A DNA stretch of 64,000 bases from a virus. Where the stretch lies: positions 62,001-126,000 of the IMG/VR virus record IMGVR_UViG_3300043122_000207. One strand, written 5' to 3'. The position numbers and the translations under genes were made by a program. Positions within the stretch are counted from its first letter, which is position 1, and each line of letters starts with the position of its first letter. The notes under the pieces are model-generated. The model did not search any database and was not told the origin of the DNA. It saw only the letters and a list, made by a program, of their open reading frames with translations. Of this stretch, positions 2,166 through 63,417 are shown one piece after another.

Positions 2166-2178
2166 CTAAAAAATTGTT
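2166..2178 (-). promoter_or_regulatory. Late-type promoter for the RusA-like operon
   Basis: On the minus strand reads AACAATTTTTTAG, matching AACA-N6-TA(G). It lies 49 nt upstream of the TTG start at 2117, so the RusA-like operon can be transcribed independently of the tail genes to its right. Confidence 0.6.
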
Positions 2179-2200
2179 GTGGGTGAGCTTATAGTTAGTT

Positions 2201-3595
2201 TTATCTTAATCCGAAAGTATCCAAAAGACTATTTACTGTGTTTACACCAATATCAGAAACATTTCTTTTTGCAGAATGATATAGTTCGCCGGGAGACAAC
2301 CTCTTTTTAACTTCATATAATAGTTTTATTTCAGCCATCAATTCTGGATCTGGCTTATTCATATTGTACCCACAAAGGGTTCCAAGATAACCCATTAATC
2401 CTGTGGTCTTAATTATCCCCGATATACTTGGTTTTTCTGGCATGTTCATTAAAGCATACAAATCTTTAACTGTCATTGTTACATCAATTTCTGTTGGTAA
2501 ACCATCGATAGATACCTTTTCTGGATGACGGTTAATGTTTATTGCTGTTGCCATTCCCATATCACAATTCATCATACCCTTTGAAAAAACTCTTAAGACA
2601 AATGGTGATGTGTAAGTGTTTGACATGTTTATTCTTCTGGATGAAACCAATGGTAATAGATGACAGATTGGAACGACTATGTTCATATAAACACTCAATG
2701 GATCACCATGTGGTGTTGAGAATTTAAATTTAACATTATATGTTTTATCATAAGAACTATCCTTCCATACATCGGGTAGTGCAACATTTACAGCCAGTGA
2801 AGAAACACCCCCGCCTAACATACCACTCAAAGCATTCATCGTGCCTGTATCCATACTCTCATTTGTGGCACCAGTATTCATTTTTTCTATATCCCTGGCA
2901 ACATCAGCACCAGCTAGAAAGGAAACTTCAGATAACTTTTGTTTTCCTGGGAAATTGTTAACCATACCCTCTATAGACGATTGTCCAACCATGTTCCCAA
3001 TTATTTCACTGGATTCAACTATACCGTCATTATAGAAAGGAACATATTGCCAGAACTTAGTTGTGTCCCCTTCACCCGATGCCTTCTGTGACATAGAATA
3101 ATTTATAAATTTTGATTTAAATTCACCCCAATGCATTTCGCTGAAATGGGACACACCATCAAAAACATCTCTGGCCATTGTATCAACACCCATCATTTTG
3201 GCAGATATACCAGCTAAAATATCAACGTATCTCCAGTATTCTGCCATGGCATTTTTAAAACCAAATAACTTATCATTTTTATAGTCCTTAAGTATCTTAT
3301 TAATATTTTCTTCTCCACCATCTGATGTTAAGCTTTTAATAAAAGTAGATACCTGTCCTGTTCCTTCACCAGGTAAAAGTTTAGCCTTACCACAAGTAAA
3401 GGCAACAAAATTCCCTTCAGTAATAAATCTTTCAACGTATTCTCCACCGTAGGGGTTATTCGTTGTTTTGGTGTCGGCTAAAGTTGAGAAAATTGGAGGT
3501 GCACCTATAAGACCTTGCAAATCAATGGTACTGTAATTAGAAGATTGGTTTGCCATAGAACCTAAAAGTCTTTCTGTTTCACCTGTCTTTGACAT
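2201..3595 (-). CDS. Virion structural protein, probably tail/baseplate
   Basis: A 464-residue protein directly downstream of the tape measure gene in the same orientation. The C-terminal half (about residues 275-400) has the pattern of phage tail-associated structural proteins: DPLSVYMNIVVPICHLLPL, then TYTSPFVLRVFSKGMM, then GLPTEIDVTMTVKDLYALM, ending in a two-Gly hydrophobic segment. The first 60 residues are Ser/Thr/Gly-rich and contain NPYGGEYVERF. The exact role (hub, tube initiator or connector) cannot be told. I chose the ATG at 3595 over a TTG six codons earlier because the GAGGGGG ribosome binding site overlaps the upstream codons. Confidence 0.55.
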   Translation of the reverse strand: MSKTGETERLLGSMANQSSNYSTIDLQGLIGAPPIFSTLADTKTTNNPYGGEYVERFITEGNFVAFTCGKAKLLPGEGTGQVSTFIKSLTSDGGEENINKILKDYKNDKLFGFKNAMAEYWRYVDILAGISAKMMGVDTMARDVFDGVSHFSEMHWGEFKSKFINYSMSQKASGEGDTTKFWQYVPFYNDGIVESSEIIGNMVGQSSIEGMVNNFPGKQKLSEVSFLAGADVARDIEKMNTGATNESMDTGTMNALSGMLGGGVSSLAVNVALPDVWKDSSYDKTYNVKFKFSTPHGDPLSVYMNIVVPICHLLPLVSSRRINMSNTYTSPFVLRVFSKGMMNCDMGMATAININRHPEKVSIDGLPTEIDVTMTVKDLYALMNMPEKPSISGIIKTTGLMGYLGTLCGYNMNKPDPELMAEIKLLYEVKKRLSPGELYHSAKRNVSDIGVNTVNSLLDTFGLR

Positions 3596-3609
3596 AATTT
3601 TTCCCCCTC

Positions 3610-3648
3610 TCAAAAAAGAAAAACAGGGGCTTTAAGTTAAGACCCCTG
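3610..3648 (-). terminator. Hairpin at the end of the tape measure gene
   Basis: On the minus strand CAGGGG and CCCCTG pair around a loop that contains the tape measure stop codon, followed by TTTTTCTTTTTT. It lies between two tail genes with no promoter after it, so it may reduce rather than stop transcription into the downstream gene. Confidence 0.55.
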
Positions 3649-6600
3649 ATGATATTTTGTTGATTGTTTCCATAAATGAATCTCTTTTATTTTTGTCTAA
3701 ATTCTGTTCATCTTTACCACCAGCATTAACATTATTTGTGTTATTGTTGCTGGTTATATTATTGGTGTTGGAGTTTTGAACTATCTCTTTACCTACTGTT
3801 GAGAACACTCCGGCCAATTTTTTAATCTCATCTATTAGAGTATCTAATTTCTCTTCAACTTTAGAATTATCAACTGATAAGTCTTTTATAGTTTCAGAAT
3901 TAGAGGAATTATTATAAGTGGTATTATTTATTTCTCTTTCGATATCCCTACCATAAGATACCCTGTCTTTTAGACTTCTTATCTTATTTAGTTGATCTGC
4001 TCTTTGTGTGTTGACCATGGATTTTATCTTATCTCTTTTTTGTCCAGTTAATAAATCAACACCTGCACCTAATCCTGCCCCAACTCTGGTTTTAAAATCA
4101 CTTAAACTAAACATCTTCTCGGGGTCCATTTTAGGTTGAGACATATAAGCTAATGAAGCATCTCTTATTATTTTGTCGTTTACTGAAATCATTTTGGTGT
4201 TGTTTTTAAGTGGATCAAATAACATCAATTTTCCACCAGATTTTTTAACCAGAACATAATGGTCATTTCCGTTTTGTGCTTTGGTTAATAACACGGATTG
4301 TGATCCTTCTGCCATATTATTCATTAGATCAGGTATATTTTCAGTATACATATCTCCTTCTAAATTATGTTTTTCGAATTGGTGTTTAAAGTAATCTATA
4401 ACAACACCGCCGTTACTTGTGTAAGGTGCAGCCTCTTTAGCTAGGACTTCAACTGGAACCTTTTTACCATAATTAGAAAGGAGCATTGATAATACAGATG
4501 GTGCACAACCACTATTAGAGAATTTCTTAGAACCGATCATTAAGTTTTTAAACTTATTGGATTTTTGGTTAACAAAATTATCTCTACCATCACCATGTGC
4601 TGCAGGGTAACCACTTGGACCCATAATAGGTTGGGTTTGACCCCTTCCTCTTTTAGCTTCGGCTTGATCATAATAACTACCAAAGTTTCCTAAAGCACCC
4701 CATACATTGGAGAATGTATTTCCAATATTACCAAAGAACCCGGTTGTGTTTTGGTATGCACTTTGCATCCAGTTAGGTGTATATCTATTTATAAAACCAC
4801 CTGCAGTCTTTTTAATAAAGTCACCAGGGTTTGTTACAATCTCTACAATTGTATCTTTAAATTCGCCCAACTTTTCAGCAATGGTTTCAAATGATTCTTT
4901 AACCTTACCTATTGTGTTATCATATATGGCATCACCCAAGTCAGTGACTTTTTTGGTAAATTCATCATAGGCTGTTTCAACCTTTGATTTTACATTATCA
5001 CCTATACCGACTATTTTGTTTTTGAATTCAGTAAATGATTCTTGAACAGGACTTACTATATTATCATCTAGTGGTTTGACTATCTTTTCATGTAAACCAT
5101 CTTTTATGGATTGAGCTGTATCGGATATCTTTAATTTAGCTTCTTCCACATTCTCTTTAACACCCTGGACTATCTCGTCAACATTAATGAATTGGTCTAC
5201 AACATCACCGGCAGTTTTTCCAGCAGCTTCTAGGAAAGAGCCAAATTTAGAATCCCAGATTGCATCTTTGATACCTATTAGTTTATCACCGATCCATCCA
5301 CCAACATCACCGATTGTTTCAATTGGGTTGGCAATTTTCTTTAAGAATTTACCTGGACCATAAGCACCAACACCAGCACCAATAAGTAATCCCAATGGAC
5401 CACCCATTGCACCACCAGCTGCACCACCTTTTATTGCACCAACTATCCCGTCATTTTCACCCATTTTCTCAAAGATACCTTTTTTAGCATCTTCGCCTTC
5501 TCCATCATTACCGACAAAGAATTCTTTGACACTTGTTGTTATTTTACTACCAAACCCAAAAATAGCATCTTTTACTCCGGTTTGGAATTTAGCTATCCTT
5601 GAACCATTTACGGCACCCATACCAGCACCCAATACTGCACCAGCTATTGTACCGACCCCTGGTCCTATAGCTGTACCTATTAATCCCCACTTAACTGCAT
5701 TCCAAACAATATTTGATACACCATCACCTGTACCACCTAGAACAGATGACATACCAGTTAGCACCTTATCTATAAATGTGGTTTCATCAACATCTTTATC
5801 AAGCATATCGCTTGCATGAATAAAACCTTTAATGGCATCCCAGACACTCATACCAGCACCAGCCGCACCAGAAGCTGCCATACCTGCACCAGCCAATATT
5901 CCTCCAGCACCGTGAGTTGCAACAGCATTGGTGGCGACACCGGCAACAGTACCACCGACAGTTCCACCTAATAATTCAGCTATGGATTCTTGTAAAACAC
6001 CATCTATTAACCCACCTTCATCTTTACTTCCTTTTTTACTTCCGAGTTTATCTTTTATTTTTCCAAGTAAAGATGTTCTTTTGGATTCATTTGAAATGTC
6101 CATTTCCTGTTGTCTATCGGCAACCGTTAAAGCCGTAGAAGAATCAAAATCAATATCTCTACCTTCATGGTTTTGTGCATTCTCAGTTTTATCTAAATCA
6201 TCTTTGGCTGCATTGTAAGCATCAGCATCGATAGCACCCACAGCACCAATAGCATCTAGATGACCACCATCAACATATACTTTCTGAACCCTTTTGGAAA
6301 ATAACTTATCTTTTATCTTTCCAGCTTTATCAGAAAATAAACTACCAACAGATAGTGCTTTATCCAAACCCCACTTACCAGCAGATTTTATTCCACCCCA
6401 TAATTTAGAGATACCACTTGCTAAATGTTCCTTAGCTGATGTGAAGAATTCTTTTCCTCTTTCTTTAAACTCGCCCATTGACTCTTTAATTGATGGGTAG
6501 ATATCTTCTTTCCATCTTTCCCAAGCTGAGGCAGATTTCTTTTTCATATCTTTCATGAATTCTATAGCAGATTCTTTCATAGATTTAGCTGCATCAGACA

Positions 6601-10744: not shown

Positions 10745-10758
10745 CTATTTACTTTGTT
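10745..10758 (-). promoter_or_regulatory. Late-type promoter for the tape measure operon
   Basis: Minus-strand AACAAAGTAAATAG (AACA-N7-TAG), 37 nt upstream of the TTG start at 10708. It stands back to back with the PhoH promoter at 10789-10801. Confidence 0.6.
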
Positions 10759-10788: not shown

Positions 10789-10801
10789 AACAATACTGTA
10801 G
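10789..10801 (+). promoter_or_regulatory. Late-type promoter for the PhoH-like gene
   Basis: AACAATACTGTAG, an exact AACA-N6-TA(G) match, 39 nt upstream of the GTG start at 10840. Confidence 0.65.
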
Positions 10802-10839
10802 TGTTTTTATATTTATATAGTATTTGAGGGGGAAAAAAT

Positions 10840-11819: not shown

Positions 11820-11833
11820 AACAATTTAGATAG
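11820..11833 (+). promoter_or_regulatory. Late-type promoter for the portal-like gene
   Basis: AACAATTTAGATAG (AACA-N7-TAG), 33 nt upstream of the ATG at 11866. Confidence 0.6.
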
Positions 11834-14067: not shown

Positions 14068-14469
14068 TTATTCTTTAAAAAAATCCTCTATATTCTTTTT
14101 CAGTTGAATTAAGAATTCAAATAATATGTTATGTTGAACACATTCTTTTATATAGTTCTTTTTAAACATGTTTTCCAATACCACCCTTCGAGTAATATAT
14201 TTATGTTCCAAATGTATGGTATATAAAATTGCTACGGTAGTGAATATCCATAGTAACCTAACATTACCTGAACCCGAATTAATACTCATAAATGTAGTAT
14301 ATAAGCATAACAACATTAAAGTTATCATTCTCAACATACCCTTTAAATCGTATGTGTCCCTTATGATATAAATTTTTTTTCCCTCATAAACGGTTCCGAC
14401 TCTACCTATTGTTTTCTCTAAGACAAAAACTTTTTTATCGGGATTAGTCTTACATTTCCATTTTTCCAT
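14068..14469 (-). CDS. Small membrane protein
   Basis: A 133-residue protein with two adjacent hydrophobic segments at about residues 45-63 and 70-88 (GMLRMITLMLLCLYTTF and RLLWIFTTVAILYTIH), flanked by polar termini. Its ATG overlaps the stop codon of the thymidylate kinase gene by one base, so it is translated from the polymerase-kinase transcript. No family recognised. Confidence 0.65.
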   Translation of the reverse strand: MEKWKCKTNPDKKVFVLEKTIGRVGTVYEGKKIYIIRDTYDLKGMLRMITLMLLCLYTTFMSINSGSGNVRLLWIFTTVAILYTIHLEHKYITRRVVLENMFKKNYIKECVQHNILFEFLIQLKKNIEDFFKE

Positions 14470-15197
14470 TAAATACCACCTTCACTAGTGCCCCCATACG
14501 TTATCCAAGCTGGATTAGGTAATACACCTTTTCTTTTTATTGATTCACATATTTCCCCGAGTATGGTTTCTCTATTCTTTAACTGTCCATTTTCACTACA
14601 TTTGATTATGTCCCATTTTTGTCTTTTTACAACAAATAAAGAATTCTCATGGGTTTTTTTCATGTATGCTTTATCAACTTCATGTATATCTTTATCCTTG
14701 GTGCCAGTGATTTTATTTTTTCTATTCTCTATAAGTTTTTCTCTGATATCATAATCCATATGAAGGAAAATTGTGATATCTGGTTTTGGTAAACCTAGTT
14801 TATTATACTCTAAATCATATTCCCAATCTAAAAATTTTTCTTTTTCATTTAAGGTTTCGAATTTAGAACTCTGGTGTATCATATTGGAAGAAACATATCT
14901 ATCCATTATTATAATATATCCTTCATCAACATATTTTTTCCATGTGTTTTTAAAGGATATAAACCTATCCGAGGCATAAAATAAAGATGCAGGGTAACCA
15001 CCGATATCTTCAGCCTCTTTAGAAATTTCACCATTTAAATACATTTTAACTAAATGTGAAGAATCATTATCATAGAAAGGGAAGGATAATCTTTTCACCT
15101 TCTCATATCTACCATTTAAATAATCATATAATAATCTGGTCTGTGTTTCTTTCCCTACACCATCTACACCATCAATCGCTATTATTTTGGATTCCAT
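14469..15197 (-). CDS. tmk: Thymidylate (dTMP/dUMP) kinase
   Basis: A 242-residue P-loop nucleoside monophosphate kinase. GVDGVGKETQT at residues 10-20 is the P-loop; the usual Ser/Thr after Lys16 is Glu17, with Thr18 next. FYASDRF at about 73-79 and MDRYVSSNMIHQ at about 97-108 carry the family's DR(Y/W) and nucleotide-binding residues, and PDITIFLHMD at about 138-147 is the conserved strand. The reaction is phosphorylation of dTMP to dTDP; some phage enzymes also use dUMP. It lies 13 nt downstream of the polymerase last exon, and the window also has a dCTP deaminase and a ThyX-like gene, pointing to a phage-run pyrimidine pool. Confidence 0.85.
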   Translation of the reverse strand: MESKIIAIDGVDGVGKETQTRLLYDYLNGRYEKVKRLSFPFYDNDSSHLVKMYLNGEISKEAEDIGGYPASLFYASDRFISFKNTWKKYVDEGYIIIMDRYVSSNMIHQSSKFETLNEKEKFLDWEYDLEYNKLGLPKPDITIFLHMDYDIREKLIENRKNKITGTKDKDIHEVDKAYMKKTHENSLFVVKRQKWDIIKCSENGQLKNRETILGEICESIKRKGVLPNPAWITYGGTSEGGI

Positions 15198-18430: not shown

Positions 18431-19748
18431 CACTGTTGCTATTCATAACAAATAGCTTAGTGGACTATATCATATCCGTACATTCTTAAACAGGGGGCGA
18501 TTCATTTGAAAAATGTAAAAATTAATACTGAGGAAACTTTATTTGATTATCACATTGATAAGGATGGTTTCATTTATGGACAATACGATAGACCTTTAAC
18601 TATATATAAAAATGGTAAAGGTGAGTTTGTCAAAATGTATCATGAGGGGTCTTCAAAATCTTTTCATATACATGAGCTAATTGCGTATACTTTTTTGGAA
18701 TATGAAAAGAGTGAAGACACAATAATATCTTATTACCCTAATAAAAAAACCAAACTGAACAACGTGAAGATATCCAATGTTTTCGATTACGTTGAAAATA
18801 GACATGGTTTCAAAAAACCCAAATTTTTAAAATACGATGATAAAAAATACACCAAATATATCGTGGATATAGATGGTCGTGTATTCAACACCGAAACATA
18901 TAAAATATTATCTGAGCATCAAACCCCTCAGGGATATGTCTTTGTGACATTAAATTTAAAGACAAGAATGATGCATCGTATTTTATATAGCACATACGTT
19001 GAACCCATGGATCCTGATCTAGTTATAAACCATAAAGACGGCATTAAGTCAAACAATACCCTCAGTAACTTAGAGTAGGTGACCACAAGAGAAAACTCAA
19101 TGCACGCTATCAATACTGGGTTAATTGAGACATTTGGGCCCGAAACAATAGAACCTATTTTGACCTTATACTATGGTGGGGAGGGAAGAAAACATATCTC
19201 AGAAAGATTAGGTATCAATTATAATACGGTTAGGTATATAATAGAAAAACATGCCAACCATTCTCCCGACTTTATTAACAGAACTTCTTTCAATTTATTA
19301 GAAGTTGAAAAAATATTCAAATTAAAAGAAAAAGGCTATTCATATTCTGAAATCTCAAAAAGAATCGATCACAAAAATATTTCCACCATAGGGTATACAT
19401 TGAATAATAAAAATTTCCAAAGAATGTTTAAAAATGATTAGGATTTGCCTGTTTCCATTTAATCACATGGGTTTTTAGTGAACCTTTCGAGGGCTGTACT
19501 ATATCTAAAAAGATACCCTAGTCTCTGAACCCACACCATGATGACCTATATAAAAGTCATTTTAGATGTTCGGCTGCTGATTATCCATTATAACTCTCCT
19601 TAGGGCACCATCCTTAATTGGGTGGTGTTTTTATTTCACCATAGAGAATCCCCTAACTTGTTTCTGACTTTCGTCACCTTTGTATGGGTTTTCACCGCAT
19701 ATTTTGGTACAGGGGCGTTAAGAACTCCCAGCATTTAAGGCAATTTTA
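18431..19748 (-). mobile_element. Group I intron 1 in the DNA polymerase gene
   Basis: A 1318-nt insertion just before motif B. Minus-strand core elements: AAATGCTGGGAG (P) and AATCAGCAGCCGAAC (Q), and GGTTCAGAGACTA (R, plus coordinates about 19516-19532). GATATAGTCC (S) is 1 kb away at 18462-18471, with the antisense HNH gene in between. A GCTATT/AATAGC hairpin (P9) precedes the 3' site. The 5' junction is less certain than in intron 2: exon TGTGGT can pair with GCCUUA seven bases into the intron. I placed the ends after GGT and before ACA because this restores the family spacing around motif B. The 307 bases from 19442 to 19748 hold only this intron core. Confidence 0.7.
18506..19441 (+). 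pseudogene. HNH homing endonuclease broken by an amber codon, antisense in intron 1
   Basis: One reading frame of 312 codons interrupted by a single TAG at 19076-19078. Before it lies an HNH core (MMHRILYSTYVEP, VINHKDGIKSNNTLSNLE); after it VTTRENSMHAINTGL. The family normally reads LEWVT here, so a TGG Trp codon has become TAG by one base change. The downstream part (GINYNTVRYIIEKH, KGYSYSEISKRIDHK) is the DNA-binding region and would be lost. The gene is on the plus strand, opposite to the intron and polymerase. Start is TTG at 18506 after AGGGGG. TAG is a normal stop elsewhere in this genome, so recoding is unlikely. Confidence 0.8.
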
Positions 19749-20222: not shown

Positions 20223-20235
20223 AACAATATTTTAG
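20223..20235 (+). promoter_or_regulatory. Late-type promoter for the 20289 gene
   Basis: AACAATATTTTAG, AACA-N6-TA(G), 54 nt upstream of the ATG at 20289. Confidence 0.55.
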
Positions 20236-20239: not shown

Positions 20240-20251
20240 CATTAAATTGTT
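20240..20251 (-). promoter_or_regulatory. Possible weak late-type promoter for the DNA polymerase
   Basis: Minus-strand AACAATTTAATG fits AACA-N6-T but ends TG instead of TA. It lies 36 nt upstream of the polymerase start, the same distance as the better sites. Confidence 0.35.
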
Positions 20252-20752: not shown

Positions 20753-20812
20753 ATTTGTCACCAACAACCATTTAGACCACATCCAAATGATGTAGATGCT
20801 ATATGTCTACGA

Positions 20813-23550: not shown

Positions 23551-23563
23551 AACAATTGAATAG
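23551..23563 (+). promoter_or_regulatory. Late-type promoter for the beta-prime C-terminal gene
   Basis: AACAATTGAATAG, exact AACA-N6-TA(G), 35 nt upstream of the ATG at 23598. Confidence 0.65.
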
Positions 23564-25740: not shown

Positions 25741-25753
25741 AACAAGTCTATAG
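25741..25753 (+). promoter_or_regulatory. Late-type promoter for the helicase gene
   Basis: AACAAGTCTATAG, exact AACA-N6-TA(G), 37 nt upstream of the ATG at 25790. Confidence 0.6.
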
Positions 25754-28133: not shown

Positions 28134-28146
28134 AACAAAAATGTAG
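28134..28146 (+). promoter_or_regulatory. Late-type promoter for the chaperonin gene
   Basis: AACAAAAATGTAG, exact AACA-N6-TA(G), 33 nt upstream of the ATG at 28179. Confidence 0.6.
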
Positions 28147-35384: not shown

Positions 35385-35396
35385 CAAATCATTGTT
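35385..35396 (-). promoter_or_regulatory. Possible weak late-type promoter, 35358 operon
   Basis: Minus-strand AACAATGATTTG fits AACA-N6-T but ends TG. It lies 27 nt upstream of the ATG at 35358. Confidence 0.35.
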
Positions 35397-35452: not shown

Positions 35453-35466
35453 AACAATTTTTATAG
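35453..35466 (+). promoter_or_regulatory. Late-type promoter for the tail sheath-tube unit
   Basis: AACAATTTTTATAG (AACA-N7-TAG), 29 nt upstream of the ATG at 35495. Confidence 0.6.
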
Positions 35467-39531: not shown

Positions 39532-39545
39532 AACAATTAAATTAG
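39532..39545 (+). promoter_or_regulatory. Late-type promoter for the 39600 unit
   Basis: AACAATTAAATTAG (AACA-N7-TAG), 55 nt upstream of the ATG at 39600. Confidence 0.6.
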
Positions 39546-39547: not shown

Positions 39548-39559
39548 CATTATTTTGTT
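39548..39559 (-). promoter_or_regulatory. Possible weak late-type promoter for the 39485 gene
   Basis: Minus-strand AACAAAATAATG fits AACA-N6-T but ends TG, 63 nt upstream of the ATG at 39485. Confidence 0.3.
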
Positions 39560-43301: not shown

Positions 43302-43343
43302 ATTTCCTTAGCCTATAACAAAAAAATAGATAAGGAAATATAA

Positions 43344-45967: not shown

Positions 45968-45981
45968 AACAACTATATTAG
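45968..45981 (+). promoter_or_regulatory. Late-type promoter for the 46016 unit
   Basis: AACAACTATATTAG (AACA-N7-TAG), 35 nt upstream of the ATG at 46016. Confidence 0.6.
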
Positions 45982-48125: not shown

Positions 48126-48142
48126 TTATTATTTTATAACAG

Positions 48143-48153
48143 TTATATATTAT
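48143..48153 (+). promoter_or_regulatory. Early-type promoter for the 48.2-49.7 kb operon
   Basis: Exact TTATATATTAT, 25 nt upstream of the ATG at 48178. Confidence 0.6.
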
Positions 48154-49706: not shown

Positions 49707-49750
49707 TTTTCAGTAACAATCTTTTGAAGGATTGTACAAATTCCTTTTGA

Positions 49751-49761
49751 TTATATATTAT
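49751..49761 (+). promoter_or_regulatory. Early-type promoter for the beta-prime N operon
   Basis: Exact TTATATATTAT, 63 nt upstream of the ATG at 49824. Confidence 0.6.
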
Positions 49762-49823
49762 ATAGACGAAACAAATAAAATATTAAAAGGAAAACAATTT
49801 ATTTATCATAATAAGGAGATGAT

Positions 49824-51194
49824 ATGGAGATGGGTAGAAAAGGACTTAGTTTTTCATTTTTGAATTTAGAAAAATTAGTTAAAAAAGACATTAAGAATGA
49901 AACTGGTTTTATGTTGGATACCAGTATAAACTACCTTTATTTGTACAAAGAGGAAATGTTAATGAGTGATTCTATTTATTCTAGAAAGTTTGGAATAAGT
50001 GAATCAGACCCTAAAAGTATACTGGCTTATCTTTACACATGTAAATGTGAGAATTTATTAGGTCAGAATAATAAAGGGAGAGTTTGTCCTGAGTGTGGTT
50101 ATAAAGTAAAAAAACAAGAGTTCCCAATAACGATAAGAGCTTGGGGTAAAATAGCACCACATAAAATAATGACTTATGCAGGTTTACTACACTTTAGAAC
50201 TGTACTTGGGAGAAAGAACTTTAAGAAATTTTTGAATGGGAAGTTAAAAACAGAGGACGGAAGTAAAATAAAGGTTACAGAATTATATGAGAAATTTGAT
50301 ATAGTTTTAAAGAAGGTAGGTAAATCATCTAAATCAGACACCACTAAATTTCTTTTAAAACACAAAGAAGATTTCTTCACATCGTATATACCTGTGATAA
50401 GTAAGAAAACAAGGTATTTACACAGGAGCGAGAATATCGTTCCCCATTATACAATTCATGATATGAATAGTATATACACATCAATATCTGGTGACATACA
50501 AACTCTAAGGGATTACTGTGATAGAGAAAATACCCCAAAGATTACAGAAAATACTGTTAGAGCTATACAGAGAAAATACTGGGATTTAAACGACAACTTA
50601 ATAACAGAAATAGTCGGTGGGGGTAAAGAAAAGATATTACGTAACGAGATATTCGCAACAAGATTACCCTTTACTTCACGTTGTGTGATTGTGCCACATG
50701 TCACCAAACATATTGATGCGATAACTGTACCTTATGATGTCTTTAGAGGTATATTTAGAAGAGAGATATTTGATGTTCTAGTCAATAATGGGATGCCAGT
50801 AGATAGAGCTTATAGGTTTATTGATATTAATATCGATCTAAGAGAAGACGATAAGAAAGTTCTTGATGAGATACTGGAAAAAGATATCGAGAACAATTAT
50901 GTTCTCGTCAATAGACAACCGACATTAAAATTTGAATCCACCAAATCATTGAGGATATCAAGTCTCGAAGATGAAAATGTATTAAGGATACCTTCTGTTC
51001 TGCTTGAAGGATACAATGGTGATCATGACGGTGATGCACTTACTATGACACACCAAGATAGAGATTTATATATGGACATCCATGTGTATATGCAACCTAA
51101 AGTACACATAGTAGATTATAAAAGGAAAGTTAATGAGGGGTTAAGTCTAATAAAATCTCAGTCATTAATATTTAAATCTAGTTTAGAAGAGTAG
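49824..51194 (+). CDS. RNA polymerase beta-prime subunit, N-terminal half
   Basis: A 456-residue protein matching the first half of RpoC. Cys73, Cys75, Cys88 and Cys91 form the zinc-1 motif (CKC...CPEC) at the clamp. VNRQPTLKFESTKSLRI (about 366-382) is the LLNRAPTLHRLG region. NGDHDGD at 398-404 supplies the three catalytic Asp of NADFDGD that bind the active-site magnesium. The chain stops about 50 residues later, so trigger-loop and later parts come from another gene; the only matching C-terminal half here (23598) lies under a late promoter. This gene is under an early-type promoter, first in a cluster of unknown genes. AAGGAG lies five bases upstream of the ATG. Confidence 0.85.
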   Translation: MEMGRKGLSFSFLNLEKLVKKDIKNETGFMLDTSINYLYLYKEEMLMSDSIYSRKFGISESDPKSILAYLYTCKCENLLGQNNKGRVCPECGYKVKKQEFPITIRAWGKIAPHKIMTYAGLLHFRTVLGRKNFKKFLNGKLKTEDGSKIKVTELYEKFDIVLKKVGKSSKSDTTKFLLKHKEDFFTSYIPVISKKTRYLHRSENIVPHYTIHDMNSIYTSISGDIQTLRDYCDRENTPKITENTVRAIQRKYWDLNDNLITEIVGGGKEKILRNEIFATRLPFTSRCVIVPHVTKHIDAITVPYDVFRGIFRREIFDVLVNNGMPVDRAYRFIDINIDLREDDKKVLDEILEKDIENNYVLVNRQPTLKFESTKSLRISSLEDENVLRIPSVLLEGYNGDHDGDALTMTHQDRDLYMDIHVYMQPKVHIVDYKRKVNEGLSLIKSQSLIFKSSLEE

Positions 51195-54177: not shown

Positions 54178-54189
54178 AACAAACTAATA
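54178..54189 (+). promoter_or_regulatory. Possible late-type promoter for the 54205 gene
   Basis: AACAAACTAATA fits AACA-N6-TA without the final G, only 16 nt upstream of the ATG, so it is less certain than the others. Confidence 0.4.
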
Positions 54190-55205: not shown

Positions 55206-55234
55206 GGGCGAGGGTTAAACCCTCGCTTTTTTTA
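55206..55234. terminator. Terminator between converging genes
   Basis: GCGAGGG and CCCTCGC pair around TTAAA, followed by seven T on the plus strand; it overlaps the 3' end of the dCTP deaminase gene. Confidence 0.7.
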
Positions 55235-55771
55235 TTCGAATTCTTTATATATCTTACTCCCTTGGATACCTTTATTTTTTTGGTATTTACCTTTATCATA
55301 TGTTTTTAATATAGGCCCCATTAACGGTTCATAATATATTTGACATATCTCTATATCAGGGTATAAAAACACTGGCTCTGTACAACTGAGCTCAAGTGTC
55401 CAATACCCCTCAAAGCCGTTATCCCCAAATCCTGCAGTTGCATGGATATCAATACCCAATCTACCGATAGAACTTCTTCCTTCTAATCCTGGTACCAAAT
55501 TGTGCGTTTTAGTGTACTCTCTTGTTCTACCTAGATATAATTTATTGGGTTTCATCAAAAAACCATTTTTTTTGTCTATTTTGAAGGTTTTTGTTTTCAT
55601 TTCTTTTCTCATGTCAAGTGGTTCTCCATTAATAGAATTTTCATAAACAGTTAATTCATTGTGTAACCTAAGATTATAACTGTTTGGGTTTAATCTCTCT
55701 AAATCAAAATCCTCTATATAAATATCACCTTCATCAATTCTATCTAAAATTCCACCATCCGATAATTTCAT
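55232..55771 (-). CDS. dcd: dCTP deaminase
   Basis: A 179-residue member of the dCTP deaminase/dUTPase family. LSDGGILDRIDEGDIYI is the family start; GRSSIGRLGIDIHATAG (about 98-114) holds the nucleotide-binding Arg/Ser and the His-x-Thr-Ala-Gly, and EGYWTLEL (Glu127) the catalytic Glu. The TAG (not TAH) version resembles bifunctional enzymes that turn dCTP into dUMP through dUTP, but this cannot be fixed by eye. It feeds the dUMP used by a thymidylate synthase, or a dUTP pool for U-containing DNA as in PBS1/AR9. Confidence 0.85.
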   Translation of the reverse strand: MKLSDGGILDRIDEGDIYIEDFDLERLNPNSYNLRLHNELTVYENSINGEPLDMRKEMKTKTFKIDKKNGFLMKPNKLYLGRTREYTKTHNLVPGLEGRSSIGRLGIDIHATAGFGDNGFEGYWTLELSCTEPVFLYPDIEICQIYYEPLMGPILKTYDKGKYQKNKGIQGSKIYKEFE

Positions 55772-56017: not shown

Positions 56018-56044
56018 TTTTATCACCATTTCATTGTTATCAAA

Positions 56045-56076: not shown

Positions 56077-56202
56077 CTTATAAGGAATTAATATGGAGAA
56101 AACAAGGCAAGGGATTAAGAGAAATACATAATGATCTCATCTAAGACACTTGGGATAGTTTCAATAAGTTCACAGTGTATTTTTATTTCTTAATCTACCT
56201 CT
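56045..56202 (-). ncRNA. Candidate small RNA, promoter to terminator
   Basis: A minus-strand transcript from the late-type promoter at 56201-56213 would end at the hairpin at 56045-56076, giving about 155 nt. I see no gene with a ribosome binding site inside. No known RNA family is recognised, and the promoter alone does not prove the transcript. Confidence 0.35.
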
Positions 56203-56213
56203 AGTATATTGTT
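56201..56213 (-). promoter_or_regulatory. Late-type promoter, minus strand
   Basis: Minus-strand AACAATATACTAG, AACA-N6-TA(G). No gene starts within 180 nt downstream, but a terminator lies 125 nt downstream. Confidence 0.5.
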
Positions 56214-56240: not shown

Positions 56241-56253
56241 AACAAGCTTATAG
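56241..56253 (+). promoter_or_regulatory. Late-type promoter for the ThyX-like gene
   Basis: AACAAGCTTATAG, exact AACA-N6-TA(G), 22 nt upstream of the ATG at 56275. Confidence 0.55.
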
Positions 56254-56274: not shown

Positions 56275-57123
56275 ATGAATGTAAATATAGTTGGTAATGG
56301 AAAAGTTCATCTTTTATCCGGTGGTGGTAAATGTTTTACTGATGTTGTGGCTAGGTTTGTTGGGTCAGAAAGAAATGTTGAAGAAATAATAGGGAGCGAT
56401 TATAATAAAGAAATTATAAAAAACATTTTAGAATCTGGACATTTAGCATGTACCGAATTTGATCATTTTATATTTGGAGTTGAAGGATATGCAAGAGTAA
56501 CAGAAGTCCAGTTGATAAGGAAACGGTTGGCTTCATACATGATAAAATCTGGAAGAGTTGAAAAGAATGGGAAAAGAAAATTCGATGTTGTTGTTCCCGA
56601 AGATATCCTTTATCATAATACAGAATATAATTTAAAACCAGAGGATATATTTGTGGACGGTATACCTCTAGATGAAATTTTATATGATGCTGGTTATGAT
56701 AATGTAGGGAGAGAGGATATTACATTTGATTTTGATGGGTATGACCTATTATCTATGATGGAGAAGTGGTATGATGAAGGTGTTGAGTTGGGTCTTCCTG
56801 AAGAGAATTTAAGATATTTGAAACCACAAGCTACAGAATTTAAAGGTGTATTCAGTATGAATGCACATGGTCTTTTAGATTGGTTTAAAATCAGATGTTG
56901 TATGACAGCTCAAGATGGTGTTAGAGATATGGCTAATAAAACAAAAGATATCTGTAAGGATGTATTCCCAGATTTATTTAAGGATGCCGGTGCAAGTTGT
57001 GTTTCTTTAGGGTATTGTCCAGAAAACAGCAGACAACATGGAGCATGTAGTATCATAACCCATGAAGAAGTAAAAGAAATGATAAAGGAATCTAAAAGGT
57101 GTAATACAAAATGGGTGAAGTAG
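56275..57123 (+). CDS. ThyX-like flavin-dependent thymidylate synthase
   Basis: A 282-residue ThyX-fold protein. EVQLIRKRLASYMIKSGR (about 78-94) is the ThyX signature position: family consensus R-H-R-x7-S is here R82-K83-R84-x7-S92. FSMNAHGLLDWFKIRCCMTAQ (about 202-222) with the following RDMANK matches the conserved helix that binds substrate and FAD, and a C-terminal SLGYCPENSRQHGACS segment is present. ThyX methylates dUMP with FAD and methylene-folate. The His to Lys change in the signature may alter activity or substrate. Start at 56275 after GGGAGG; late-type promoter 22 nt upstream. Coupled by overlap to the next small gene. Confidence 0.7.
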   Translation: MNVNIVGNGKVHLLSGGGKCFTDVVARFVGSERNVEEIIGSDYNKEIIKNILESGHLACTEFDHFIFGVEGYARVTEVQLIRKRLASYMIKSGRVEKNGKRKFDVVVPEDILYHNTEYNLKPEDIFVDGIPLDEILYDAGYDNVGREDITFDFDGYDLLSMMEKWYDEGVELGLPEENLRYLKPQATEFKGVFSMNAHGLLDWFKIRCCMTAQDGVRDMANKTKDICKDVFPDLFKDAGASCVSLGYCPENSRQHGACSIITHEEVKEMIKESKRCNTKWVK

Positions 57124-57802: not shown

Positions 57803-60800
57803 TTATTCGATGTCCATATCTTCTTTACACTGTTTTATAAGTTTTCTCATTGCACCTGTTAGGAGCCCTGAAATAAAAACAGAGTTAGTCATTCTTTTCA
57901 TAGGTGAATTTGGTGATAAAACCACATCAACATTTCTGCCAGTTTCAACACCTGTTGGCATCTTCTCGTCATCGTAAACTCTGGCATTAATGGCTTTTAA
58001 AGAGGTATAGTTTGTACCCTTATCACCAGTGGAGAAGATATCATAACTTTCCACATAATACTCAAATAAAACTTCATCTTTATTAAGTTTTATACCATTT
58101 ATTTTATCACCAACCTTTACCTTAGCATTTTTCTTACCGAAAAGAATTTTACTTTCAGTTGAACCATGTTCTTCCAACTGTTTAGCATTAGATTGTTTGT
58201 TATTTAATAAAAAATCATCTATTTTTCTTATATGGTATTGTATACTGTTTGAATATTCGTCAAGATTAGAAGTTCTATAAACTCTCATATCAACTATTCT
58301 ACCACCACGTTTTACTTTCTTTTCGTGTTGATTTAATTCTGATGACTCTACATTTAAAAACTCATCAACCTCTTCATCACCAGTCATGGATTCGAAAACC
58401 ATTAACGGTTCTCCAGATCTCACCTCTTTGAATTCTGCAACAGACTCATGTATTTTAGCATCATTTTTTAAAAGAACAGCATATTTTTTAATAACCTTTG
58501 TTGCTAATCTTTTTGTAAGTGATCTAGAAACCATAGTGGAATCCTCATAAGTCTCTGGTGCTGAATGTAATGCTAGAGTAACTATTGGACCAGGAGTAAA
58601 ATGAAGTGAATATCCGTCTGTTTTAAAGAAGTTTTTATTATATGCTAAAACATCGCCGGCTTTTATTTTCTTACCAACTTTAATTTTTGGCATCAACTTC
58701 ATTTCGTTAGATATATACATGCTTTTAGCTGAATTCTTTTCTACAGAATTTATAGGGAAACTATCTTCTGTTCCGTCAGAGTATTCCACGGTAATATAAT
58801 TTCCAGATATATTAGATACCACGCCGTCTTTTTTAGATTTTCTAACAAACTCATTTGACATATGTGCTAAAGCTTCATCTGCACCAGTGGAGACCATTAG
58901 GGGGTCTGCATCTTCAACACCCATAAGGTGGTTTGTCTGACTTAAATTCATAGCAGTTCTCGGTGCATCATCTTTTGAGGTGGTCATAGGAGTTAAAACT
59001 TCCGATATAGATAGGAGTGTTTTAGAATCAAGATCATCCACATCCTCCATATCTACGTTTTCAAAAAACCCTCTAGCAGATAATATCTTTGGGTCTACAC
59101 CAAAATGCTTTACAACACCAATGGAACCTGAGTAAGCAGAAGCCATAGAGAATTTACCATAGAAACTAGGATCATACAATCTCTTATCTGCTGTGTATGC
59201 TCTATCTAAGTTCAACCCAGATAGACCTTTCATTGAAGCAGATGAATATTTATCTATCTCTCTAGCTGGATTAACAGTAGAGTATTCCTCAAGGTTTGGT
59301 AATTCATATAACTTTTTAATTACAGCATTTTTATCAATTGAGAAAGTAGATTTAGTATTACCTCTTTTTTTAGCAACAGAGAATTTTTCATATTCATCAG
59401 CTAAAACATTAGCCATTGTCGCAGTTATTAATTCCTGATATCTAACCCTTGAATTTCTTATATCGATGTCCTTTTCATTTACAGCTGTGGATAATAGATA
59501 ATTAGCATAAATTAAAAGATCGGTGAATTCAGTGGGTAAGGAAAAATGAACCAATATATTTTTGGTTATTGCATCTATCATCGTATTATTGTAGTTATCA
59601 ATATATACTGGGAAATTATGACTACCCATTTCATCTTCTAATATATTTGCCATAACATCTTTATCTTCTAAGTCTGCTAGTTCGTATCCAGAAAGATCCA
59701 TTCTCTGCAAGTAACTCATAATAGATATATTAGCCATTGAATCATATTTATAAATTAAATATGTGTCTTCAAATTCAATTAGACCTTCTTTAAATTTATC
59801 TATCTTTGGTTTCTTTTCTTTAGTTTCTAACCTATAATCAATATCCATTTTTTCCATTAAAGAATCTAAGCCCATAAGATAAGTTAATATAAGAACTAAG
59901 GGTGCATCTTTACCCAGTATCTTTACAGAAGTATAAACGATAGTTTTTGGCACTGTGTTTTTTTCTTCAATATACTTATGGAGTTTTGGGATATATTCCT
60001 CTGAAACTTTTATCAGAAATTCTGATAAAACCATACCCTTATAATCACCATCGGTGGTTATGGTTTCTGTCTCTTTATTTAGGATTATCTCGTTACCTTC
60101 TATCTCACCTAGAACAATTTCATTTTCATTATCGTTTTCATACAACTGTTTTGATTTTTCATAATCGAATATAAGGTTAACGCTATTTGTGTTTACTTCT
60201 GATAAATATCTTGATATACCATTATATTCTCTAGTGGTTTCCCCTGTATTGAAGTTGGTTTCAAAAGCTGATTCAAAATTAATTATATCAGACTTATTTT
60301 CATCTTCAAACTTTTTAAAACCTCTGACAAATTTAGAATAAATAGGAGATAGGTATTTTCCACCTTTATATGTCATCCGTAATTTATTTCTATTTGAGGT
60401 TATAATAACGTACTCTTCATTTTTTGTTATGGGGTTACTCATGATCTGTCCTATGATATTTTTTTTAGAACCACCAAGATACACAAATTTATCATAAACC
60501 AATTTTGGTAATGTTATTTTCACATTGTGCCTATTACCCTCTAAATCTTTGAATTTCATTTTGATATCTTCAGTATAGTTTAACTCATCTGATGAGTCTT
60601 CTGTTTCTATTTTTTGAATGTATAAGGGGACATCTGTATTAGAGAAAGATTGTGCTATTTCTGTAATATCAAATTTCTTTAATTTTTCATCATATGTTTT
60701 ATTGAAGTTAACAAAAGAGTTCTCATTGTATTTATCTATGGCTGTTATATCATATGAATCTTTTGGTACATCTATATCCTTTATTTCTTCTAGAAGTTCA

Positions 60801-61927
60801 GAATACGACATATCATCTATTTCCACATTCATAACATCCTCGATATATTTTCTTTCTTTCTCACCCATTTCAGATACTCTCTCTAGGGCTTTAGTCCTTA
60901 CTTCCTTCAATATTTTAGATATCTCTTTTGCTTTTTCCGGTTCATCAGTCATATTAATTACTTTATCTAAAACTTCTTCCTCTATTAGCGGTACATCTTT
61001 TTTCTCTTCTTTATCTTCTTTTTCTTCTTTTTCTATTTCTCCTTCGGGGTCTATCTCTTCATCAGGAGAATCTTCATCTTCTAATGTATCTACAACAGCG
61101 TCAGTTACTTCGTGTTTTATCCTGTCGTTATCGTTTTCTTTAGTTTCTTCGTCATCATCGTCTGAAGTTTTAAGTCTTCTAAAACGCAACAGTATATCTT
61201 TTAAAAGATCACTCACATCAGAGTTACTCTCTTTAAGATATTCATCCAACCTCTCATCAAATGATAATTTAAATAATCCCTTTTCTGAAGTAAAGACAAT
61301 GGTTGTGTCTTTGAATACATCTTTTAAGTATTTTAAATCAGGATTATATTTTAAAACATAAAGAAAAAGGTATAGTAAATTGGGGGTTGTATAATCTGAT
61401 TTTTTGATATCCCCAACATTCACAATATCAGTATCAGATATATCGAATAAAATGTATTTGTCATCGTATTCTTCTGCTGAATTTATTATATCCTTTATGA
61501 TTGTCTTATAATATTCATCTACAAATTTGTAATTTTTTATATCTTTAGAAAAAATCATTTCATTTATTAACGATACATCATAAAAAAGATTTCTTTTAGA
61601 GTATTGAGATAAATTCCTATACATATATTTTATCTCGGGACAATTATCTTTAACATAATCGTATACTTTTTTCAAATCATTTTTCATATACACTCTCTGT
61701 GAAAGAATTTTTTCTTTATAAATTCTATCAACATAAATAGCTTTAACTCTTCTTAAGTGTAAATGATATGGTGAATTCTGTTGGGAATCATTTATGTACT
61801 TTAATGTATCATCAAAATTAGTGAACATAGGTATTATAAATCTACCTTTTGTATATGGTTTCTTTCTACTTAGAGCATAGATTCTTCTGCCTATTTTCAT
61901 CGTTGATAAGTCTTCCAAAAATATCAT
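57803..61927 (-). CDS. RNA polymerase beta subunit, single chain
   Basis: A 1374-residue RpoB-type subunit. The C-terminal third matches beta: PRTAMNLSQTNHLMGVEDAD and VSTGADEALAHMS (fork/rifampicin region), KVGKKIKAGDVLAYNK, DGYSLHFTPGPIVTLAL and STMVSRSL (beta GYNFEDAILLSE region), then STGDKGTNYTSLKAIN and VDVVLSPNSPMKRM (beta GDKMAGRHGNKG, VDIVLNPLGVPSRM). The N-terminal half diverges and holds an acidic low-complexity insert near residues 265-330. AR9/phiKZ polymerases split beta in two genes; here it is one. Start at 61927 after GAGAGGTG, 30 nt downstream of a late-type promoter. Confidence 0.85.
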   Translation of the reverse strand: MIFLEDLSTMKIGRRIYALSRKKPYTKGRFIIPMFTNFDDTLKYINDSQQNSPYHLHLRRVKAIYVDRIYKEKILSQRVYMKNDLKKVYDYVKDNCPEIKYMYRNLSQYSKRNLFYDVSLINEMIFSKDIKNYKFVDEYYKTIIKDIINSAEEYDDKYILFDISDTDIVNVGDIKKSDYTTPNLLYLFLYVLKYNPDLKYLKDVFKDTTIVFTSEKGLFKLSFDERLDEYLKESNSDVSDLLKDILLRFRRLKTSDDDDEETKENDNDRIKHEVTDAVVDTLEDEDSPDEEIDPEGEIEKEEKEDKEEKKDVPLIEEEVLDKVINMTDEPEKAKEISKILKEVRTKALERVSEMGEKERKYIEDVMNVEIDDMSYSELLEEIKDIDVPKDSYDITAIDKYNENSFVNFNKTYDEKLKKFDITEIAQSFSNTDVPLYIQKIETEDSSDELNYTEDIKMKFKDLEGNRHNVKITLPKLVYDKFVYLGGSKKNIIGQIMSNPITKNEEYVIITSNRNKLRMTYKGGKYLSPIYSKFVRGFKKFEDENKSDIINFESAFETNFNTGETTREYNGISRYLSEVNTNSVNLIFDYEKSKQLYENDNENEIVLGEIEGNEIILNKETETITTDGDYKGMVLSEFLIKVSEEYIPKLHKYIEEKNTVPKTIVYTSVKILGKDAPLVLILTYLMGLDSLMEKMDIDYRLETKEKKPKIDKFKEGLIEFEDTYLIYKYDSMANISIMSYLQRMDLSGYELADLEDKDVMANILEDEMGSHNFPVYIDNYNNTMIDAITKNILVHFSLPTEFTDLLIYANYLLSTAVNEKDIDIRNSRVRYQELITATMANVLADEYEKFSVAKKRGNTKSTFSIDKNAVIKKLYELPNLEEYSTVNPAREIDKYSSASMKGLSGLNLDRAYTADKRLYDPSFYGKFSMASAYSGSIGVVKHFGVDPKILSARGFFENVDMEDVDDLDSKTLLSISEVLTPMTTSKDDAPRTAMNLSQTNHLMGVEDADPLMVSTGADEALAHMSNEFVRKSKKDGVVSNISGNYITVEYSDGTEDSFPINSVEKNSAKSMYISNEMKLMPKIKVGKKIKAGDVLAYNKNFFKTDGYSLHFTPGPIVTLALHSAPETYEDSTMVSRSLTKRLATKVIKKYAVLLKNDAKIHESVAEFKEVRSGEPLMVFESMTGDEEVDEFLNVESSELNQHEKKVKRGGRIVDMRVYRTSNLDEYSNSIQYHIRKIDDFLLNNKQSNAKQLEEHGSTESKILFGKKNAKVKVGDKINGIKLNKDEVLFEYYVESYDIFSTGDKGTNYTSLKAINARVYDDEKMPTGVETGRNVDVVLSPNSPMKRMTNSVFISGLLTGAMRKLIKQCKEDMDIE

Positions 61928-61956: not shown

Positions 61957-61970
61957 CTAATTGGATTGTT
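61957..61970 (-). promoter_or_regulatory. Late-type promoter for the beta gene
   Basis: Minus-strand AACAATCCAATTAG (AACA-N7-TAG), 30 nt upstream of the ATG at 61927. Confidence 0.6.
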
Positions 61971-63032: not shown

Positions 63033-63045
63033 TTTTTCTCACCTC

Positions 63046-63345
63046 CTATTTTTTCTTATTTTTTAAATATTCGTGTGCTTCTTCTTTGAAATATTTAGCA
63101 CCCGTACCTACAACTATCAAAGAAGAAATCCATTTAAGAGAATTGAAAAATGAAGTATCTTCTATAAGTCCCTCTTTCAGGAAAAGAAATAAAAAAAATA
63201 CTATTGCAGTTAAAATAACATCATTTCTTATATCATCTTTTCCTAGTGTGGAAATTATAACTCTTTTGAGTATACTAACCCAGCTTGTGTTTTCATTATA
63301 GTTTTCTATAGGGTTTTCTTCAACCTTCTTTTTTTCTTCATCCAT
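63046..63345 (-). CDS. Small membrane protein, holin-like (99 aa)
   Basis: Two hydrophobic segments (NDVILTAIVFFLFLFLKEG and SLKWISSLIVVGTGAKYF) between charged ends, the size and shape of a small holin. The ATG at 63345 has AAAGGGTGA upstream; a GTG three codons earlier is an alternative. First gene of the trio with a late-type promoter 26 nt upstream. Confidence 0.6.
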   Translation of the reverse strand: MDEEKKKVEENPIENYNENTSWVSILKRVIISTLGKDDIRNDVILTAIVFFLFLFLKEGLIEDTSFFNSLKWISSLIVVGTGAKYFKEEAHEYLKNKKK

Positions 63346-63370
63346 TATGTTCACCCTTTCCTTTTATACA

Positions 63371-63384
63371 CTATAGTGTTTGTT
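63371..63384 (-). promoter_or_regulatory. Late-type promoter for the membrane-protein trio
   Basis: Minus-strand AACAAACACTATAG (AACA-N7-TAG), 26 nt upstream of the ATG at 63345; paired back to back with the 63404 site. Confidence 0.6.
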
Positions 63385-63403
63385 TCCTTTGACCCCCAAA
63401 TGA

Positions 63404-63417
63404 AACAATTATAATAG
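63404..63417 (+). promoter_or_regulatory. Late-type promoter for the right-end gene
   Basis: AACAATTATAATAG (AACA-N7-TAG), 16 nt upstream of the ATG at 63433. Confidence 0.55.

What the first reader, a model, noticed from the sequence alone, without database searches (positions are those of the whole stretch)
2166..63417. AR9-type late promoter regulon: AACA-N6/7-TA(G) before about twenty units on both strands
Sites of the form AACA, six or seven bases, TA(G) occur upstream of PhoH, portal, beta-prime-C, helicase, chaperonin, HTH, amidase, sheath, 39600, 46016, ThyX, the 63433 gene, and on the minus strand RusA, tape measure, beta and the membrane trio, usually 15-55 nt before the start codon. 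The well-formed ones share AACAA-N5/6-TAG. The AR9 non-virion RNA polymerase recognises late promoters described as AACA(N6)TW, reading the template strand. The same motif here implies a polymerase of that lineage and lets late genes be assigned by promoter alone.
Basis: partly seen in the sequence, partly recalled or inferred. Interest (0 to 1): 0.85.

Follow-up and report, generated by a model that had tools for sequence, protein, structure and literature searches.

The report
Late promoters of a giant phage
This giant phage marks its late genes with a short DNA signal almost identical to that of Bacillus phage AR9 and keeps that signal out of its genes; AR9's enzyme needs uracil DNA to read it, whereas this phage carries genes for making thymine, so how the signal is read here is an open, testable question.

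Summary
Confirmed and sharpened. AACAA-N5/6-TR (AACA, six or seven bases, TA/TG) occurs 27 times in 42 upstream regions of the window (dinucleotide shuffles 4.1, maximum 11 of 300). Within genes of the 144 kb of this genome that I held it is avoided: 8 found against 65 expected (N5) and 26 against 86 (N6). Words with other spacings are only mildly depleted (0.63-0.67). It is a signal under selection, not AT-rich noise. The genome encodes relatives of the AR9 non-virion RNA polymerase (beta-prime N and C in the window, beta-C and a weakly matched beta-N outside) and AR9-type early promoters (TATATATTAT-N6-G). The lineage claim is supported. Uracil or template-strand reading is unproven. No transcription start was mapped. 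New variant of a known kind.

The parts
2167..2178 (-). late promoter AACAA-N5-TR, 50 nt before RusA-like gene
10746..10758 (-). late promoter AACAA-N6-TR, 38 nt before tape-measure-like gene
10794..10805 (-). AACA-N6-TR site, 86 nt before tape-measure-like gene
10789..10800 (+). late promoter AACAA-N5-TR before PhoH (the region also holds an early-type site)
11820..11832 (+). late promoter AACAA-N6-TR before portal-like gene
18447..18459 (+). AACAA-N6-TR site 176 nt before gene 18635 (distant, less certain)
20223..20234 (+). late promoter AACAA-N5-TR before gene 20289
20240..20251 (-). late promoter AACAA-N5-TR before gene 19746-20204 (piece of DNA polymerase)
20763..20774 (+). late promoter AACAA-N5-TR before gene 20850 (the region also holds an early-type site)
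23551..23562 (+). late promoter AACAA-N5-TR before nvRNAP beta-prime C
25741..25752 (+). late promoter AACAA-N5-TR before helicase
28134..28145 (+). late promoter AACAA-N5-TR before GroEL
30270..30302 (+). two AACA-N6-TR sites (30270, 30291) before gene 30342
31122..31134 (+). late promoter AACAA-N6-TR before amidase
35385..35396 (-). late promoter AACAA-N5-TR before gene 34723-35358
35453..35465 (+). late promoter AACAA-N6-TR before tail sheath
39532..39544 (+). late promoter AACAA-N6-TR before gene 39600
39548..39559 (-). late promoter AACAA-N5-TR before gene 38388-39485
43317..43328 (+). late promoter AACAA-N5-TR before gene 43407 (the region also holds an early-type site)
45968..45980 (+). 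late promoter AACAA-N6-TR before gene 46016
48138..48149 (+). AACA-N6-TR site before gene 48178 (the region also holds an early-type site)
49715..49805 (+). three late-type sites (49715, 49770, 49793) before nvRNAP beta-prime N; the region also holds an early-type site
54178..54189 (+). late promoter AACAA-N5-TR before gene 54205
56202..56213 (-). AACAA-N5-TR site 173 nt before gene 55790-56029 (distant, less certain)
56241..56252 (+). late promoter AACAA-N5-TR before ThyX
61958..61970 (-). late promoter AACAA-N6-TR before the beta-like (virion-type) RNAP subunit
63369..63384 (-). overlapping late-type sites (63380, 63384) before the membrane-protein genes
63404..63416 (+). late promoter AACAA-N6-TR before the gene starting at 63433 (runs off the window)
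23598..25421 (+). nvRNAP beta-prime C subunit (AR9 chain 7S00_D, E 5.8e-15)
49824..51194 (+). nvRNAP beta-prime N subunit (AR9 chain 7S00_d, E 2.5e-13)
57803..61927 (-). single-chain beta-like RNAP subunit, nearest Fusobacterium JD-Fnp phages, then phiR1-37 gp099 (annotated a structural protein), so virion-type
56275..57123 (+). ThyX, flavin-dependent thymidylate synthase (PF02511, E 1.8e-26); bears on U versus T in the DNA
14469..15197 (-). thymidylate kinase family protein (PF02223, E 1.3e-21)
55232..55771 (-). dCTP deaminase-like protein (PF22769, E 1.4e-36)

Best explanation
The motif is the late promoter of this phage's own multisubunit non-virion RNA polymerase (nvRNAP), orthologous to the AR9 late promoter. 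The first base of the TR purine would be +1 or next to it, with AACAA about 7-11 (or 8-12) bases upstream. Shown: position before genes on both strands; strict identity of AACA and of a 6-base spacer, with a 7-base spacer also used when a fifth A follows; avoidance inside genes; presence of four nvRNAP core subunits (one only weakly matched) and of AR9-like early promoters. Inferred: vRNAP injected with the virion reads TATATATTAT-N6-G promoters, makes nvRNAP, and nvRNAP with a sigma-like subunit (best candidate: the 516-aa gene directly upstream of the DNA primase, at genome 148938-150488) then reads AACAA-N5/6-TR. Because the phage encodes ThyX and thymidylate kinase, I think its polymerase reads thymine-containing promoters, unlike AR9's.
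For: Upstream enrichment and repetition outside the window. Coding avoidance under synonymous-codon shuffles: AACA-N6-TR 88 of 168 expected, z -8.4; AACAA-N5-TR 8 of 65, z -8.8, AACAA-N6-TR 26 of 86, z -6.7, AACAB-N6-TR 191 of 198. Same word in relatives: JD-Fnp1 38 upstream against 9.3, coding 21 of 193 expected; phiR1-37 26 against 9.1, first of 17525 words; AR9 85 kb 42 against 12.6; phiKZ 50 kb 8 against 6.1 with no coding avoidance. nvRNAP subunits. Early promoters: 22 of 95 upstream regions (8 of 42 in the window), G after six bases at 17 of 24 sites. AR9 consensus AACA-(6N)-T A/G at 94 of 118 late starts: passages of PMC5312081. ThyX and thymidylate kinase over cut-off only in this genome among 7 searched; ThyA in none of the 7.
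Against: No RNA 5' end has been mapped. gp226 was not detected, and the candidate sigma-like gene has no significant profile match and no usable model (pLDDT 33). AR9 itself shows no coding avoidance (96 of 101), so avoidance is not a general mark of this promoter. The Staphylococcus MarsHill and Listeria LPJP1 stretches, both from reported uracil-DNA phages with gp226, show no upstream enrichment (5 against 5.3; 8 against 5.4). Other AACAA words are mildly depleted too (0.63-0.67). ThyX could serve another purpose than making thymine for phage DNA.
Confidence: 0.85

Rival explanations
1. As above, but the DNA contains uracil and the enzyme reads template-strand uracils exactly as in AR9; ThyX and the kinase act on something else or are accessory.
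For: Promoter and core enzyme are of the AR9 lineage; in the first search of the beta subunit the nearest named records after the Fusobacterium phages are phiR1-37, Staphylococcus phages and PBS1, several of them reported uracil-DNA phages (passages of PMC10303552).
Against: 0 of 4 reported uracil-DNA phages searched (AR9, phiR1-37, MarsHill, LPJP1) has ThyX or ThyA; this genome has ThyX and a thymidylate kinase. Relatives with a thymidylate synthase also show the motif (G004 13 against 5.5; G010 11 against 5.2).
Confidence: 0.25
2. The word is a promoter element of the host RNA polymerase with a host or phage sigma factor.
For: Upstream position, and TA near the start as in many promoters; JD-Fnp1 and this phage have strong Shine-Dalgarno sites of host type.
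Against: Exact match in word and spacing to a mapped nvRNAP consensus; same word in phages of Bacillus, Yersinia and Fusobacterium; absent in phiKZ.
Confidence: 0.06
3. A by-product of AT-rich composition, codon use or reading-frame effects.
For: Non-coding DNA is AT-rich; the raw genome count of AACA-N6-TAG is below its reversed control.
Against: Dinucleotide shuffles, other spacers in the same DNA, synonymous-codon shuffles with one-base variants, and repetition in stretches outside the window.
Confidence: 0.02

Closest known systems
AR9 late promoter, AACA-(6N)-T A/G (PMC5312081, passages seen)
   Same: Core AACA, six-base spacer, TR at the presumed start; leader lengths of tens of bases; both strands; coexists with an AT-rich early promoter ending N6-G.
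   Different: A fifth A is preferred and a seven-base spacer is used before known structural genes (portal, sheath); strong avoidance inside genes, none in the 85 kb of AR9 tested; gp226 not recognisable; ThyX and thymidylate kinase present.
Late regions of Yersinia phage phiR1-37
   Same: AACA-N6-TR is the top upstream word in the 100 kb tested and is avoided in genes.
   Different: No second spacing (spacer 7: 6 sites, spacer 6: 26); its RNA-seq paper reports no new conserved sequence (passages of PMC4848604); gp226 homologue present.
Fusobacterium phage JD-Fnp1 (ON464759)
   Same: Nearest named relative by the beta-like subunit (33%); AACA-N6-TR 38 upstream against 9.3; gp226 not detected either.
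   Different: Much stronger avoidance (21 of 193 expected), T at -16 and A at -14 as well; no ThyX, ThyA or thymidylate kinase found.
phiKZ late promoter (TATG at the start)
   Same: Read by a related five-subunit nvRNAP, in a thymine-DNA phage (passages of PMC7598289 and PMC9209446).
   Different: Different word; AACA-N6-TR neither enriched upstream nor avoided in the 50 kb tested.

Membership tests
AR9-type nvRNAP late promoter | AACA, 6-base spacer, T then A/G, before genes | tested here: met
AR9-type nvRNAP late promoter | single spacing of six | tested here: not met
   seven-base spacing also enriched with AACAA (17 upstream in 144 kb; 11 in the window) and avoided in genes, 26 of 86. The AR9 paper also reports 17 late promoters with other distances or one or two non-consensus bases, so this is a variant, not an exclusion.
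AR9-type nvRNAP late promoter | transcription starts at the final A/G | not testable with these tools
   needs 5' end mapping
AR9-type nvRNAP | split beta-prime N/C and beta N/C core subunits | tested here: met
   beta-prime N and C, beta-C; beta-N weak, E 0.0087 against AR9 alone and 7.6e-4 against an AR9 plus MarsHill profile
AR9-type nvRNAP | gp226-like specificity subunit with 2.1bis helix | tested here: inconclusive
   not detected by tblastn, HMM or profile comparison; positional candidate of 516 aa next to the primase. 50.6 kb of the genome was covered by the quick genome search only.
AR9-type nvRNAP | requires uracil at template -11/-10 (valine 206 of gp226) | not testable with these tools
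   no alignable residue in this phage; ThyX and kinase argue against. In 19 gp226 relatives valine is at this column in 12, others T, T, K, R, R, P, Q.
Uracil-DNA phage | no thymidylate synthase | tested here: not met
   ThyX present in this genome, absent with ThyA in 4 of 4 reported uracil-DNA phages searched
phiKZ late promoter | TATG at the start | not tested
   only AACA-N6-TR was tested on phiKZ

The most novel reading that the evidence does not exclude
The AACA(A)-N6-TR promoter is older than uracil DNA in this phage lineage: it is read in thymine DNA by nvRNAPs whose specificity subunit has diverged beyond recognition (this phage) or has lost the uracil-selecting valine (for example G004, with proline at that column and its own ThyX). 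Uracil selectivity in AR9 would then be a later refinement, and this phage additionally reads two spacings.
Probability: 0.45. Interest if true: 0.78.

Novelty: new variant of a known kind. Interest (0 to 1): 0.62.

Why it matters
AR9's promoter is the textbook case of a polymerase that reads uracil in the template strand and so ignores host DNA. If the same promoter works in a thymine-DNA phage, uracil is not what the promoter is for, and another barrier must keep the enzyme off host DNA. The strong avoidance of the word inside genes gives a way to read promoter specificity from genome sequence alone, base by base and spacing by spacing; on phiR1-37, where the RNA-seq paper reported no new conserved sequence upstream of new starts, it points to the AR9 word. 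It also gives a concrete, cheap test set (Fusobacterium phages are in culture).

Tried and rejected
Rejected: AT-rich chance and codon effects; host-type promoter (comparison). Tried without result: gp226 by tblastn in the own genome and in JD-Fnp1 and two near-identical contigs by profile; HMM on all held frames and a wider 19-sequence profile; profile-profile comparison. The best single candidates (JDFnp1_165 and window 21217-22113) were dropped: short, insignificant matches. AlphaFold without an alignment gave pLDDT 33, so no fold search was made. Searches for distant relatives of the sigma candidate and of beta-N found only near-identical contigs (JDFnp1_71 none). Uracil-pocket residues R363, K375, N382 of beta-N could not be aligned reliably in this phage. 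PDB profile search with the candidate: one chance hit.

Rows and limits: JD-Fnp1 was held as five overlapping loci, so about 3.6 of 180 kb was counted twice. My gene caller is a simple greedy one; at 62511-63032 it chose an opposite-strand ORF over the likely membrane gene. Of 12 relatives given handles, 10 were tested for the motif on two 20-kb stretches plus their 6-11 kb locus; G007 and G013 were not. Of the 10, upstream AACA-N6-TR exceeded other spacers at p below 0.02 in 7 (G004, G005, G006, G008, G009, G010, G011) and not in 3 (G003 6 against 3.1, G012 4 against 1.9, G014 2 against 3.9). Thymidylate synthase among the 12: ThyX 1 (G004), ThyA 4 (G010, G012, G013, G014); several records are fragments.


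Full report
What was checked. The window is positions 62001-126000 of a 194,604-base virus record. I called genes with a simple ORF picker (67 genes, 42 upstream regions of at least 20 nt) and asked whether AACA-Nk-T[AG] depends on k. In upstream DNA of the window k=6 occurs 21 times against a mean of 7.1 for 15 other spacers; in coding DNA it is rarer than other spacers (sense 36 against 67.8, antisense 16 against 48.7). In a scan of every 4-mer, spacer 0-12 and dinucleotide class, it is third of 9239 words, behind two Shine-Dalgarno words. A raw whole-genome count of AACA-N6-TAG is below its reversed control (35 against 50), as expected if a rare upstream excess is masked by avoidance in genes.

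Sharpening. Synonymous-codon shuffles, which keep each protein and its codon use, give 88 found against 168 expected for AACA-N6-TR in genes of window plus left flank (z -8.4). At -11, -10, -9, -8 and -1, one-base variants are near or above expectation, with two mild exceptions (A-10 to T 0.84, A-8 to G 0.73); at the start base, C and T are near expectation (1.10 and 0.95), A and G are depleted (0.48 and 0.61). Splitting by the next base shows the real word in this phage: AACAA-N5-TR 8 found of 65 expected, AACAA-N6-TR 26 of 86, but AACAB-N6-TR 191 of 198 and AACAB-N5-TR 95 of 131; other AACAA spacings are mildly depleted, 0.63-0.67. Upstream, AACAA-N5-TR occurs 26 times and AACAA-N6-TR 17 times in 144 kb, against 5-10 for the other spacings listed from 2 to 10. 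In the window, 27 upstream sites stand against 4.1 in shuffles (maximum 11 of 300); outside it, 16 against 4.4 (maximum 13 of 300). The seven-base spacing precedes portal, amidase, sheath, genes 39600 and 46016, and beta.

Held-out stretches. The left 60 kb was fetched after the test was set. The plain word is only weakly enriched there (11 against 5.9, p 0.04) and is not among the eight best words, but coding avoidance is as strong (36 of 74, z -5.9).

The enzyme. Window 49824-51194 and 23598-25421 match the AR9 nvRNAP beta-prime N and C chains of PDB 7S00 (E 2.5e-13, 5.8e-15). Beta-C lies at genome 140683-142620 and matches AR9 beta-C at E 3.8e-32. A 444-aa gene three kilobases on is the beta-N candidate (E 0.0087 with AR9 alone, 7.6e-4 with an AR9 plus MarsHill profile). 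Window 57803-61927 is a single-chain beta nearest to four Fusobacterium phages (33%) and then phiR1-37 gp099, annotated as a structural protein, so I take it as virion-type.

The missing sigma. AR9 gp226 has clear relatives only in Bacillus, Staphylococcus, Listeria and Yersinia phages among 50,697 phage records (20 records). None was found in this genome or JD-Fnp1. The genome search tool warns that an empty answer proves little, and 50.6 kb of this genome was searched only that way. By position, the best candidate is a 516-aa gene directly upstream of the DNA primase (L021:14938-16488, genome 148938-150488), where AR9 and BpSp keep gp226 and phiR1-37 has it one gene away. A search with primases brought 27 loci; in 21 of them a gp226 relative was found, 20 at E below 1e-18 with the six-sequence profile and one (L051, cut at the contig end) at E 2.8e-23 with the wider profile. 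The other six are L028 (near-identical to this phage), L040, L041, L045, L050 and L054. The candidate has an ortholog in JD-Fnp1 (E about 1e-10) and an early-type promoter 47 nt upstream. Profile comparison with gp226 is not significant, so homology is unproven.

Uracil or thymine. The AR9 structure paper (passages) ties uracil choice to valine 206 of gp226, called absolutely conserved among close homologs. In my 19-sequence alignment 12 have valine there and 7 do not (T, T, K, R, R, P, Q); W208 is invariant. This window encodes ThyX with a R-x-R-x-x-S-x4-S-x-R motif (the motif is recalled, the residues are), thymidylate kinase and a dCTP deaminase-like protein. Of 7 records searched, ThyX and thymidylate kinase pass the cut-off only here, ThyA nowhere; the six others are JD-Fnp1, AR9, phiR1-37, MarsHill, LPJP1 and BpSp, of which AR9, phiR1-37, MarsHill and LPJP1 are reported uracil-DNA phages (passages). 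I therefore think thymine DNA likely, not shown. JD-Fnp1 has none of these genes, so the argument does not reach it.

Relatives. AACA-N6-TR upstream against mean of other spacers, and coding found/expected: this genome 144 kb 35 against 14.3, 0.53; JD-Fnp1 38 against 9.3, 0.11; AR9 85 kb 42 against 12.6, 0.95; phiR1-37 100 kb 26 against 9.1, 0.56, first of 17525 words; MarsHill 50 kb 5 against 5.3, 0.67; LPJP1 50 kb 8 against 5.4, 0.76; phiKZ 50 kb 8 against 6.1, 1.12. In JD-Fnp1 neighbouring AACA spacings are also depleted (0.21 at seven, 0.45-0.54 at 4, 5 and 8) and so are AACA-N6-AR and -GR (0.51, 0.58), so there AACA itself is avoided. Ten metagenomic relatives: p below 0.02 upstream in 7 of 10, including G004 (proline at the valine column, ThyX), G005, G006 and G011, where the gene before the primase also fails the gp226 profile (25 against 6.4, third of 10292 words); not in G003, G012, G014. 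Coding ratios were 1.18, 0.95, 0.75, 0.70, 0.39, 1.13, 0.69, 0.72, 0.36, 1.06 for G003, 4, 5, 6, 8, 9, 10, 11, 12, 14. AR9 uses the promoter without avoidance, so avoidance is not a universal mark.

Early promoters. The commonest enriched 11-mers besides Shine-Dalgarno words are TATATATTAT forms. They occur in 22 of 95 upstream regions (8 of 42 in the window), with G after six further bases at 17 of 24 sites, which is the AR9 early consensus (passage). In the window 21 regions have late sites only, 5 both, 3 early only and 13 neither. Beta-prime N has both classes, as expected of a polymerase made by the virion enzyme and kept on by itself.

Print. Searches of the held open-access library listed no paper describing this promoter in Fusobacterium phages or phiR1-37. 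The phiR1-37 RNA-seq paper reports no new conserved upstream sequence (passages). Subscription journals and preprints were not covered.

Verdict. Observation confirmed; lineage supported; uracil and template-strand reading untested and doubtful here; a new variant of a known promoter.

Noticed in passing
window upstream regions at 10709-10839, 20721-20849, 23112-23209, 29832-29934, 40737-40805, 43302-43406, 48089-48177, 49679-49823 (+): Early-type promoters TATATATTAT (up to one mismatch), mostly followed by N6-G, as in AR9.
   Followed up: partly
L055-L056 (phiR1-37, 1-100000): AACA-N6-TR is the most over-represented upstream word of 17525 and is avoided in genes, although the RNA-seq paper saw no new motif. 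Sites often read TAG (A 0.87, then G 0.78).
   Followed up: partly
L003, L012-L015 (JD-Fnp1): Extreme avoidance of AACA-N6-TR in genes (21 of 193 expected; 3 antisense of 67.5) and extra conserved T at -16 and A at -14 of the upstream sites.
   Followed up: partly
L029-L046 loci, aligned gp226 relatives: The uracil-selecting valine of gp226 is replaced by T, K, R, P or Q in 7 of 19 relatives, while W208 is invariant.
   Followed up: partly
window 15211-20204 (-): A DNA polymerase gene in three separate pieces with an HNH endonuclease gene (16832-17575) between two of them, suggesting introns.
   Followed up: no
L017:14208-17944 (-), genome 36208-39944: An RNA polymerase-like gene in three pieces matching one JD-Fnp1 gene (JDFnp1_14), also suggesting introns.
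   Followed up: no
window 28179-29831 (+): GroEL-like chaperonin; in AR9, BpSp and phiR1-37 GroEL lies two genes upstream of gp226, here it does not neighbour the sigma candidate.
   Followed up: partly
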